A stretch of DNA of 64,000 bases from Chloroflexia bacterium SDU3-3 (lineage in GTDB: Bacteria > Chloroflexota > Chloroflexia > Chloroflexales > Roseiflexaceae), in contig WBOU01000005.1 of NCBI GenBank assembly GCA_009268125.1, positions 248,001 through 312,000 of the forward strand. Direction: 5' to 3'. Positions 2,254 through 47,968 of the stretch are shown piece by piece; position 1 is the stretch's first letter, and every line of letters starts with the position of its first letter. The position numbers and the translations under genes are program-made. The notes below the pieces were generated by a model. The model searched no databases and had not been told where the DNA came from. It was given only the letters and a program-made list of their open reading frames with translations.

Positions 2254-3567
2254 ATGACGCCGCTTCGCTTTCCCCCTGGCTTCCTGTGGGGCACCGCCAG
2301 CTCCTCGCACCAGCACGAGGGGGGGAACACAAACAACCAATGGTGGGACTGGGAGCAGCAGCCGGGCAGCATCTGGCACGGCGACCGCTCGGGCGCGGCC
2401 TGCGGCTGGTGGGAGGAGATCGAGCCAGATCTCGACCGCGCCGTGGGGCTGGCCCAGAACGCGCTGCGCATCTCGCTTGAGTGGAGCCGGATCGAGCCAG
2501 AGGAGGGCCGCTTCGACGAGGGGGCCATCCAGCGCTACCGCCAGATCCTCCAGGCCATCCGCGCGCGCGGCATGACGCCGATGGTGACGCTGCACCACTT
2601 CACCAACCCGCGCTGGATCGAGCAGAAGGGCGCGTGGCTGCACCCCGAGACGCCCTACCGCTTCGCGCGGTTTGCCGAGCACGCCCTGGCCCGCCTAGGC
2701 GACCTGTGCGAGCTATGGTGCACCATCAACGAGCCGACGATCTACGCATCCATGGGATACCTGCACGGCCACTGGCCGCCGGGCCGCTACAGCGTGGGCC
2801 AGGCGCGGCGGGTGCTGGTGGCCATGCTACGCGGCCACGGGCTGGCCGTGCAGGTCATCCACGCCGCCGGGCCGCAGCACCGCGCCGGTCTGGTGCATAA
2901 CCTGCACATCGTGGACCCCTCTACCCCCAACCTGGGCGATCTGGCCATCGCCAAGTTCCTAGATGTGATCACCAACGGCGCGGTGCTGACCGCCATCCAG
3001 ACCGGGCGGATCATCCCGCCATTTGGCCACGGCAGGCTGGTGCTGCCCGGCCTAGCCGAGAGCGACTTCATCGGCCTCAACTACTACTCGCGCTCGTGGG
3101 TGGCCTTCGACATGCGCCGCCCGCGCGAGTTCTTTAGCCGCAGCTACACCCCCGACCACGCCCCGCAGAGCGACCTGAACTCGCAGGGGCGCTCGTATGG
3201 CGAGATCTACCCGGATGGCCTGTACCGCGCGCTCAAGCGGCTGAGCGGCATCGGCCTGCCGATCTACATCACCGAGACTGGCCTGCCCGACCATGACGAC
3301 GACCAGCGTCCGCAGTTCATCCTCAGCCACCTAGCCGCCGTGCACCGCGCGCTGCGCGAGGGGGCCGATGTGCGCGGCGTGTTCATCTGGTCGCTCATCG
3401 ACAACTTCGAGTGGTCGGAGGGCTGGGAGCTGCGTTTTGGGCTGTACGGGCTGGATGAGCGCACCGGCGAGCGCACGCTGCGGCCATCGGGCGCGCTCTA
3501 CGGGATCATCGCCAGGGCCAACGCCCTGCCCGCACAGCCGCACCAGCACGAGGAAAGGAAGCGATAG
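2254..3567 (+). CDS. GH1 beta-glycosidase (archaeal LacS / SFR2-like type)
   Basis: Retaining glycoside hydrolase family 1 enzyme of 437 residues. The N-terminal FPPGFLWGTASSSHQHEG (6-23), the acid/base motif CTINEP (E160) and the nucleophile motif ITETG (E341; most relatives have ITENG) are present. The C-terminal segment FIWSLIDNFEWSEGW is canonical. The stretch after the nucleophile (PDHDDDQRP) and GADVRG resemble archaeal beta-glycosidases and plant SFR2 more than typical cellobiose-type BglB enzymes; this is a judgement from remembered motifs. No signal peptide is seen, so it should be cytoplasmic or membrane-associated. A GTG at 2230 could add eight residues; the ATG at 2254 places FPxGFLWG at the usual distance. 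Its stop overlaps the next start by one base (TAGTG), implying translational coupling to the glycosyltransferase. Confidence 0.88.
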   Translation: MTPLRFPPGFLWGTASSSHQHEGGNTNNQWWDWEQQPGSIWHGDRSGAACGWWEEIEPDLDRAVGLAQNALRISLEWSRIEPEEGRFDEGAIQRYRQILQAIRARGMTPMVTLHHFTNPRWIEQKGAWLHPETPYRFARFAEHALARLGDLCELWCTINEPTIYASMGYLHGHWPPGRYSVGQARRVLVAMLRGHGLAVQVIHAAGPQHRAGLVHNLHIVDPSTPNLGDLAIAKFLDVITNGAVLTAIQTGRIIPPFGHGRLVLPGLAESDFIGLNYYSRSWVAFDMRRPREFFSRSYTPDHAPQSDLNSQGRSYGEIYPDGLYRALKRLSGIGLPIYITETGLPDHDDDQRPQFILSHLAAVHRALREGADVRGVFIWSLIDNFEWSEGWELRFGLYGLDERTGERTLRPSGALYGIIARANALPAQPHQHEERKR

Positions 3568-5054
3568 TGGAAGAGACACGCGTGCTCATCCTCTCGGCGG
3601 CGGTCGGCGCAGGGCACAAGACTGCGGCGCGGGCGCTGGAGAAGGCGTTTCGCAAGTACCCGCATGTGCAGGTGGCCAACCAAGACATCCTGGACATGAC
3701 CAACGACGCCTATAGCCGGATCTCATCCGAGGTCTACCTAGAGGCGGTGAAGCGCGTGCCCTGGCTGGTGGGCGTGGCCTACCAGTACAACGACGAGCCG
3801 TTCAAGAACGAGGAGCCGCTGCGCCGCATGTGGGACATCCTGAACACGCAGCCGGTGGTGAAGTTTCTCAAAGATTTCCAGCCGCATATCTGCGTGTGCA
3901 CCCACTACACGCCCGCCGGGATCGTGGCTCAGATGATGGCCCAGGGCCAGCTCGACACCTCGCTGTCGGTGGTGATCACCGACTTCGACTTCCAGGGCAT
4001 GTGGCTCTCCAAGACCTTCAACCGCTACTTTGTGGCCCGCGAGGAGGCCAAGGCGCGGCTGGTCGACTTCGACGTTGAGCCAGAGCACATCACGGTCTCG
4101 GGCATTCCGGTGGACAGCAGCTTCGGCGAGCCGGTGGACGCCGAGGCCGTGGCCAGGCGCTACGAGCTGGACCCCGCGCTGCCCACGCTGCTAATCTCGG
4201 CGGGGGCGGTGGGCGGCGGCCCGGCGCTGGAGATCGTGACCGAGCTGATGAAGCTGCGCCACGAGGCCCAGACCGTGGTGGTGTGCGGCTCGAACGCCCA
4301 GCTGCGCCGCGACGTGGAGACCCTGGTGCTGCCCCAGGCCCGCAAGTTCCGCGCGCTGGGCTTCACCAGCGACATGCCCGACCTCATCCGCGCCGCCACG
4401 CTGTTCATCGGCAAGCCCGGCGGCCTGACCGCCTCGGAGTGCATCGCGGCGGGCACGCCCATGATCATCGTCGAGCCAATCCCAGGCCAGGAGGAGCGCA
4501 ACGCCGACTACCTGCTGGAGGAGGGGGCCGCGCTGCGCTGCAACGACCTGGAGATCATCGACTACAAGATCGACCAGCTGCTGGACAGCCCCGAGCGGCT
4601 AGCCCAGCTGCGGGCCAACGCGCGGCGCATCGGCAGGCCCGATGCCGCCGATGTGATCGCCGCCACCGCCCTGGCCGACGAGAACGCGCCGGTGAAGTTC
4701 GACTGGCGCAGCCAGCGCAAGCGGCTGCTGGCCGAGCCGCTGGCCGCCGAGCCGCTGGCCAAGGTCGAGCGCGCCCTGTTCGGGCCAGATGAGAACGAGA
4801 CGCTGGCCTTCTACGAGGATGGCACCGGCGTGTTCTTGGGCACGCTCGACCCCGCGCAGTTTCGCAGCCTGCGCAGGCGGCTGTTCCGCAGCGGCGAGGA
4901 GGTGGCCACCACTACCGTCACCCAGGATGACCTCGACCGCATCCGCGCGCTGGGGATGGGCAGCGAGCTGGTCGACCGGATCAGCAAGCGGGTGCGCTTC
5001 CGCGGCCCGATCACGCTGCGGCGGGTGCGGATCAGCCTGCCCGAGGGCTCGTAG
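3567..5054 (+). CDS. Glycolipid glycosyltransferase, GT28 (MGDG synthase / UgtP-like)
   Basis: Predicted to transfer a hexose from a UDP-sugar to diacylglycerol, making membrane glycolipids at the cytoplasmic face. The 495-residue protein starts with RVLILSAAVGAGHKTAARAL, the MGDG_synth domain signature, and has the GT28 C-terminal donor-binding region with KPGGLTASECIAAGTPMIIV and PGQEERNADYL (about 292-316). After about residue 370 there is an extra 120-residue charged domain not found in short UgtP proteins; I do not recognise it. The GTG start overlaps the stop of the GH1 gene and is preceded by AGGAAAGGAAG. Galactose versus glucose as donor cannot be decided from sequence. MGDG-type lipids are known from phototrophic Chloroflexi, which fits. 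Confidence 0.85.
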   Translation: MEETRVLILSAAVGAGHKTAARALEKAFRKYPHVQVANQDILDMTNDAYSRISSEVYLEAVKRVPWLVGVAYQYNDEPFKNEEPLRRMWDILNTQPVVKFLKDFQPHICVCTHYTPAGIVAQMMAQGQLDTSLSVVITDFDFQGMWLSKTFNRYFVAREEAKARLVDFDVEPEHITVSGIPVDSSFGEPVDAEAVARRYELDPALPTLLISAGAVGGGPALEIVTELMKLRHEAQTVVVCGSNAQLRRDVETLVLPQARKFRALGFTSDMPDLIRAATLFIGKPGGLTASECIAAGTPMIIVEPIPGQEERNADYLLEEGAALRCNDLEIIDYKIDQLLDSPERLAQLRANARRIGRPDAADVIAATALADENAPVKFDWRSQRKRLLAEPLAAEPLAKVERALFGPDENETLAFYEDGTGVFLGTLDPAQFRSLRRRLFRSGEEVATTTVTQDDLDRIRALGMGSELVDRISKRVRFRGPITLRRVRISLPEGS

Positions 5055-5060
5055 GGCGCA

Positions 5061-5089
5061 AAAAAAGGCGGGGCCATAACGGCCCCGCC
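5061..5089 (-). terminator. Intrinsic terminator of the PHP-AlbA_2 gene
   Basis: A 9-bp perfect stem GGCGGGGCC / GGCCCCGCC with loop ATAAC at 5067-5089. Read leftward it is followed by a run of T residues. It lies between two convergent genes but has a T-tract only on the minus strand. Confidence 0.8.
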
Positions 5090-14625: not shown

Positions 14626-14700
14626 CCCCTTGGAGCCTTAGTGTCTTGGTGGTAAACCGTTTTCCCCCTTGTGCCTTCGCGCCTTCGTGGCAAAAAACCC
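14626..14700 (-). repeat. Dispersed intergenic repeat, copy 3 (inverted orientation)
   Basis: CTTGGAGCC...GTGTCTTGGTGGTAAA, then CTTGTGCCTTCGCGCCTTCGTGGCAAAAAA: the reverse complement of the module at 1761-1877. It sits between the tandem array and the DUF72 gene. Confidence 0.7.
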
Positions 14701-47840: not shown

Positions 47841-47968
47841 TCTTTACCACGAAGACGCGAAGGCTCGAAGGTTTCTCTTCCTTTTTCCTTCACGTCTTCG
47901 TGCCTTCAAGGTAATTGATTCCCTAAGGTAATTGATTCCCTTTTTTCTTGGTGTCTTGGTGGTGAAAG
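47841..47968. repeat. Dispersed intergenic repeat, copy 4, with internal 17-bp duplication
   Basis: TTACCACGAAGACGCGAAGGC (forward) is followed by CTTCACGTCTTCGTGCCTTC and TTCTTGGTGTCTTGGTGG (reverse), making a large imperfect inverted repeat. In its middle, AAGGTAATTGATTCCCT occurs twice head to tail (47908-47924, 47925-47941). Confidence 0.75.

What the first reader, a model, noticed from the sequence alone, without database searches (positions are those of the whole stretch)
2254..5054. GH1 glycosidase translationally coupled to a glycolipid glycosyltransferase
Seen: a GH1 enzyme with LacS/SFR2-like features (ITETG nucleophile motif, PDHDDDQRP) whose stop overlaps the start of a GT28 MGDG/UgtP-like gene by one base. 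Known: plant SFR2 is a GH1-family protein that transfers galactose between galactolipids, and MGDG-type synthases make its substrate. Inference: the pair may make and remodel glycolipids, with the GH1 acting as a transglycosidase rather than a hydrolase.
Basis: partly seen in the sequence, partly recalled or inferred. Interest (0 to 1): 0.65.

Follow-up and report, generated by a model that had tools for sequence, protein, structure and literature searches.

The report
Lipid-type glucosidase coupled to glycolipid synthase
A Chloroflexota bacterium carries a two-gene operon in which an enzyme that probably cuts sugars off greasy molecules is read directly before an enzyme that puts sugars onto membrane lipids; both families are known, the pairing is uncommon, and nothing shows that it works like the plant frost-tolerance enzyme SFR2.

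Summary
A GH1 gene (ATG 2254, stop 3565-3567) shares one base with the GTG start of a UgtP/MGDG-synthase-like gene (3567-5054). The GH1 is not an ordinary cellobiase. Its nearest solved relative is BGPh (1vff), the membrane-bound Pyrococcus horikoshii glycosidase that prefers long-alkyl glucosides (41% identity, collinear; 326 bits against 245 for the next). With BGPh, LacS and SFR2 it stands apart from the Thermotoga BglA type, which includes the three other GH1s of this genome, two of them in sugar-uptake operons. A specific tie to SFR2 is not supported: 28% identity, no membrane anchor, none of its inserts, and unstable tree placement. Nothing in the sequence points to transglycosylation. 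The pairing is narrow: in 158 Chloroflexia genomes 14 carry this GH1, 8 of them also the GT, 3 side by side (this genome, a same-family relative, one from another family). In two more an ordinary GH1 sits upstream of the same GT. Of 80 GH1 loci across phyla none has it adjacent. Most likely this is a cytoplasmic, membrane-associated beta-glycosidase that trims or recycles the glycolipid made by its partner. Both proteins are new members of known kinds. The lipid substrate is inferred, not shown.

The parts
2254..3567 (+). BGPh-like GH1 beta-glycosidase, 437 aa; acid/base E160 (TINEP), nucleophile E341 (ITETG)
3567..5054 (+). UgtP/MGDG-synthase-like GT28 glycosyltransferase, 495 aa, GTG start; its last ~115 aa match no Pfam family
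3565..3569 (+). TAGTG: stop of the GH1 and start of the GT share one base
3551..3562 (+). gaggaaaggaag, likely ribosome-binding site of the GT inside the end of the GH1 gene (read by eye)
5067..5089 (-). terminator-like hairpin with T tail on the - strand, between the convergent GT and the next gene

Best explanation
The gene pair is a small bicistronic unit. The GT (shown by family: MGDG_synth plus GT28 C-terminal domain, closest to UgtP/YpfP) is inferred to transfer a hexose from a UDP-sugar to diacylglycerol or a glycosyl-diacylglycerol at the inner face of the membrane. The GH1 (shown by family: retaining beta-glycosidase with intact catalytic residues, in the same assemblage as the membrane-bound, alkyl- and steryl-glucoside-cleaving enzymes of Thermococcales) is inferred to be a cytoplasmic, membrane-peripheral beta-glycosidase that hydrolyses the partner's product or a similar amphiphilic beta-glycoside, so that the unit makes and trims or recycles a membrane glycolipid. 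Coupled translation would keep the two enzymes in step. Shown: gene order, overlap, families, catalytic residues, phylogenetic position, recurrence of the pairing. Inferred: substrate, membrane association, direction of the reaction.
For: One-base overlap with an apparent ribosome-binding site for the GT. BGPh 1vff is the best solved relative by sequence (326 bits against 245) and ranks first by fold (Foldseek TM 0.89; VIA Z 53.4, though tied with other GH1s); 41% identity without internal indels of 8 or more residues. The tree separates this assemblage from BglA-type GH1s with SH-aLRT 100, and the genome's three other GH1s fall on the other side. BGPh and its Thermococcales kin hydrolyse long-alkyl or steryl glucosides and associate with membranes (PMC4687101). 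GT: PF06925 and PRK13609 diglucosyl-DAG synthase 235 bits, PDB processive DAG glucosyltransferase 9wde E 4e-39, MGD1 4wyi E 3e-20. Two other GH1s of this genome lie in ABC-sugar-importer/GH42/GH31 neighbourhoods; none lies beside this one. No signal peptide is apparent in either protein (read by eye), and no 19-residue stretch of either is as hydrophobic as SFR2's N-terminus. The pairing recurs in G062 and G018, and an ordinary GH1 sits upstream of the same GT in G036/G037, against about 0.01-0.05 expected by chance (post hoc).
Against: Eleven of 14 Chloroflexia genomes with this GH1 do not have it beside the GT; six, one of them 100% complete (G061), have no such GT at E<=1e-40. Neighbours across phyla show no lipid theme. 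A crude count of hydrophobic and basic residues in the loop beside the active site did not set this protein apart from ordinary GH1s. BGPh is a 41% relative, so its substrate range need not carry over.
Confidence: 0.5

Rival explanations
1. An ordinary cytoplasmic beta-glycosidase of soluble oligosaccharides or glycosides that happens to lie in front of the glycosyltransferase; the overlap is gene packing.
For: All -1 subsite and catalytic residues of GH1 hydrolases are kept. The GH1 is usually unlinked to the GT. Family neighbours are unrelated, including a GH3 and an MFS transporter in single genomes.
Against: Nearest characterised relative is BGPh, and the ordinary GH1s of the genome fall on the other side of the tree. 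Pairing with the same GT recurs, also with a different GH1 type.
Confidence: 0.33
2. A bacterial counterpart of SFR2: the GH1 transfers hexoses between glycolipids made by the GT, giving oligoglycosyl-diacylglycerols.
For: Same superfamily side in the full tree and shared short post-nucleophile loop. SFR2 finds members of this family as its best GH1 matches in Chloroflexota. A lipid GT is the neighbour. N-to-T after the nucleophile is a subclade trait of unknown effect.
Against: 28% identity, no N-terminal anchor and none of SFR2's inserts. SFR2 plus the window's subclade mildly rejected (AU p 0.037) and SFR2 placement unstable.
Confidence: 0.07
3. The GH1 acts on another amphiphilic glycoside (for example a carotenoid or polyprenol glucoside) and shares only membrane location or regulation with the GT.
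For: The BGPh type accepts alkyl and steryl aglycones (PMC4687101). The GH1 occurs without the GT in six Chloroflexia genomes.
Against: No pigment or isoprenoid gene identified beside it in the genomes inspected.
Confidence: 0.1

Closest known systems
BGPh (PDB 1vff), membrane-bound beta-glycosidase of Pyrococcus horikoshii, and the steryl-glucosidase of Thermococcus litoralis
   Same: Best sequence and top-ranked fold match; 41% identity, collinear; F at position 116 where BglA has W, short post-nucleophile loop, all catalytic residues
   Different: Bacterial lineage; T instead of N after the nucleophile; encoded with a lipid GT; membrane binding untested
UgtP/YpfP diglucosyl-diacylglycerol synthase and plant MGD1
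   Same: MGDG_synth plus GT28 C-terminal domains over residues 1-370
   Different: Below the NCBIfam equivalog cut-off (235 of 500 bits); about 115 extra C-terminal residues without a Pfam match; donor sugar unknown
SFR2 (plant galactolipid galactosyltransferase, GH1)
   Same: GH1 family, short post-nucleophile loop, catalytic pair
   Different: 28% identity; no N-terminal anchor or inserts; placement with this subclade mildly rejected
LacS (1uwq), Sulfolobus beta-glycosidase
   Same: D..D..RP loop after the nucleophile
   Different: 30% identity; below the BgaS equivalog cut-off (219 of 475 bits); lacks the LacS insert after position 121

Membership tests
GH1 (retaining beta-glycosidases) | GH1 profile match, acid/base and nucleophile glutamates | tested here: met
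   PF00232 250 bits against cut-off 22.6; E160 and E341 with Q20, H115, N159, N276, Y278, W379, E386, W387 kept
Ordinary bacterial beta-glucosidase (TIGR03356 BGL) | Score above the equivalog cut-off and grouping with BglA-type enzymes | tested here: not met
   268 of 478 bits; separated from TmBglA and the three paralogues with SH-aLRT 100
BGPh-like membrane-bound GH1 | Closest sequence kinship and collinearity with BGPh | tested here: met
   in the smaller tree without LacS the exact position of BGPh is weakly supported
BGPh-like membrane-bound GH1 | Hydrophobic mound and basic ring at the active-site mouth, membrane location, alkyl-glucoside preference | tested here: inconclusive
   Loop composition did not differ from ordinary GH1s; activity and location not testable here
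SFR2 (GGGT) | N-terminal anchor and family-specific inserts | tested here: not met
SFR2 (GGGT) | Specific common clade with SFR2 | tested here: inconclusive
   AU p 0.037 against, long branch, recalled sequence
SFR2 (GGGT) | Processive hexosyl transfer between glycolipids | not testable with these tools
   needs an enzyme assay
UgtP/MGDG-synthase GT28 | MGDG_synth and Glyco_tran_28_C domains | tested here: met
   PF06925 83.9 bits (cut-off 25), PF04101 37.2 (cut-off 22)
Diglucosyl-diacylglycerol synthase equivalog | Score above NF010135 cut-off | tested here: not met
   235 of 500 bits

The most novel reading that the evidence does not exclude
The pair is a bacterial glycolipid make-and-remodel unit in which the GH1 moves sugars between glycolipids made by the coupled GT, a prokaryotic parallel of MGD1 plus SFR2 reached from the BGPh branch, with the N-to-T change after the nucleophile tuning it towards transfer.
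Probability: 0.06. Interest if true: 0.75.

Novelty: new member of a known kind. Interest (0 to 1): 0.36.

Why it matters
If right, it would give the large uncharacterised bacterial branch of BGPh-like GH1 enzymes a first physiological setting, the turnover of membrane glycolipids, and a simple gene pair in which synthesis and removal of a glycolipid sugar are coupled. Plant MGDG synthase has been proposed to come from Chloroflexota (Yuzawa et al. 2012, as cited in PMC5809773), so glycolipid enzymes of this phylum are of wider interest.

Tried and rejected
SFR2 kinship: searched, aligned, put in trees and AU-tested; its branch is long and moves, so no claim is made. LacS kinship: weaker than BGPh by score and domain model. 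Hydrophobic/basic loop as a sign of membrane binding: no difference from ordinary GH1s. Neighbour survey across the family for a lipid theme: mixed functions, no theme. GT structure: model with a two-row alignment too poor to use (pLDDT 48), so no fold search was made with it. Roston et al. 2014 on SFR2 is not held; literature on Chloroflexia glycolipids gave nothing usable.

Full report
OBSERVATION. The window is G000:C5:248001-312000 of a 6.76 Mb Chloroflexia genome. The GH1 gene runs from ATG 2254 to TAG 3565-3567 (437 aa) and the next gene from GTG 3567 to 5054 (495 aa), so stop and start share one base. The purine-rich gaggaaaggaag lies just upstream of the GTG, inside the GH1 gene (read by eye). 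The flanking genes are on the other strand: glutamate dehydrogenase-like upstream (by eye) and a gene with a Schlafen/AlbA_2 domain downstream, so the pair is a two-gene unit.

WHAT THE GH1 IS. It matches PF00232 (250 bits), clearly less than the genome's three other GH1s (520-567 bits), and falls below the equivalog cut-offs for BGL (268/478) and BgaS (219/475). Its best solved relative is BGPh of Pyrococcus horikoshii, 326 bits against 245 for the next. The identity is 41%, with no internal indel of 8 or more residues, against 30% for LacS, 32% for Thermotoga BglA and 28% for SFR2. An AlphaFold2 model (pLDDT 92.4) has 1vff as first Foldseek hit and first, though tied, by VIA-align (Z 53.4).

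In an 83-row tree (quick method, SH-aLRT only) the window GH1, BGPh, LacS, SFR2 and relatives from Chloroflexota, Omnitrophota, Asgard and other archaea form one side of a branch with support 100; BglA, the three paralogues and other Chloroflexia GH1s form the other. Within it SFR2 and LacS join as long branches, which the program flags. With LacS removed, SFR2 moved; holding SFR2 with the window's subclade gave AU p 0.037, and with the ordinary GH1s p 0.29. SFR2's position is therefore unresolved.

ACTIVE SITE. All usual GH1 -1 subsite and catalytic residues are present. The family differs from ordinary GH1s by F for W at position 116 (115 of 118), T or S for D at 117, and a shortened loop after the nucleophile. 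T for N at 342, next to the nucleophile, is found in 20 of 118 rows, all in the Chloroflexia subclade that holds the window (some of those rows are the same gene fetched twice). Nothing here predicts transfer over hydrolysis.

WHAT THE GT IS. MGDG_synth plus GT28 C-terminal domains, closest to UgtP/YpfP (235 bits, below cut-off), PDB processive DAG glucosyltransferase 9wde and plant MGD1 4wyi. About 115 C-terminal residues have no Pfam match; most Chloroflexales homologues align through them, while those of one genus align only to about residue 388. The donor sugar cannot be read from this.

CONSERVATION OF THE PAIR. In 158 genomes of the class, 14 have this GH1 type and 30 the long GT; 8 have both (Fisher p 0.0009, not corrected for shared ancestry). 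The genes are adjacent in three: this genome, G062 (60-nt gap) and G018 of another family (4-nt overlap; its GT is split over two frames in the draft). In one genus with both genes they are far apart, about 590 kb in the single-contig genome G065. In G036 and G037 an ordinary GH1 lies directly upstream of the same GT. With about four GH1s per genome and 5000 genes, 0.01 to 0.05 such adjacencies would be expected in 30 genomes; the estimate is rough and made after the fact. In the GT tree the three paired GTs fall in one group with a second copy from G005, support 83/92. Among 80 GH1 loci from many phyla, none has the GT adjacent and one has a UgtP-like gene within about 2.2 kb on the other strand.

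CONTEXT. Two of the three other GH1s of this genome lie beside ABC sugar-importer genes, one also beside GH42 and GH31, as expected of soluble-sugar enzymes; this one does not. Family neighbours elsewhere are mixed.

MECHANISM. BGPh and its Thermococcales relatives prefer glucosides with long alkyl chains, cleave steryl glucosides and associate with membranes through a hydrophobic patch with a basic rim (PMC4687101). No signal peptide is apparent in either window protein and neither has a hydrophobic stretch like SFR2's N-terminus, which fits both acting at the inner face of the membrane. The best reading is that the GT makes a beta-glycosyl lipid and the GH1 removes sugar from it or a similar amphiphile. 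The family assignment is strong; lipid substrate, membrane binding and joint function are inferences. A composition test of the loop at the active-site mouth gave no support for membrane binding.

VERDICT. Real pair, GH1 of a lipid-oriented branch, partner a lipid glycosyltransferase, pairing narrow but recurrent; SFR2-like transfer unsupported.

Noticed in passing
window:1782-1875, 14636-14691, 47846-47963: A short dispersed repeat near ACCACGAAGRCRCGAAGG: 9 matches with up to 3 mismatches at three places against 0.19 expected; the copies at 1782-1875 lie upstream of the GH1.
   Followed up: partly
window:5109-7439 (-): Downstream convergent gene with a Schlafen/AlbA_2 domain and an N-terminus that reads like a PHP domain (by eye); a similar gene with the same domain lies at the same place beside the pair in G062 (L144:3693-6113).
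   Followed up: partly
L162:9162-10523 and L165:2275-3642: In G037 and G036 an ordinary GH1, from the other side of the tree, sits directly upstream of the same GT, so the GH1-GT pairing may have arisen twice.
   Followed up: partly
window:3277-3279 (residue T342 of the GH1): N-to-T change next to the catalytic nucleophile, shared by the Chloroflexia subclade and replaced by I or V in its nearest relatives; effect unknown.
   Followed up: partly
L051, L054, L055, L058, L061, L062, L083, upstream of the GH1: One protein cluster (c6) lies upstream of the GH1 in seven Anaerolineaceae-type loci; the L051 member is a DegV-family protein. DegV proteins are known as fatty-acid binders (own knowledge).
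   Followed up: no
L174:6754-7533: A bacteriorhodopsin-like gene about 540 bases downstream of the unpaired GH1 in G065.
   Followed up: no
window:4689-5054 (GT residues 375-495): C-terminal extension of the GT without a Pfam match, shared by most long Chloroflexales homologues; the structure prediction failed.
   Followed up: partly
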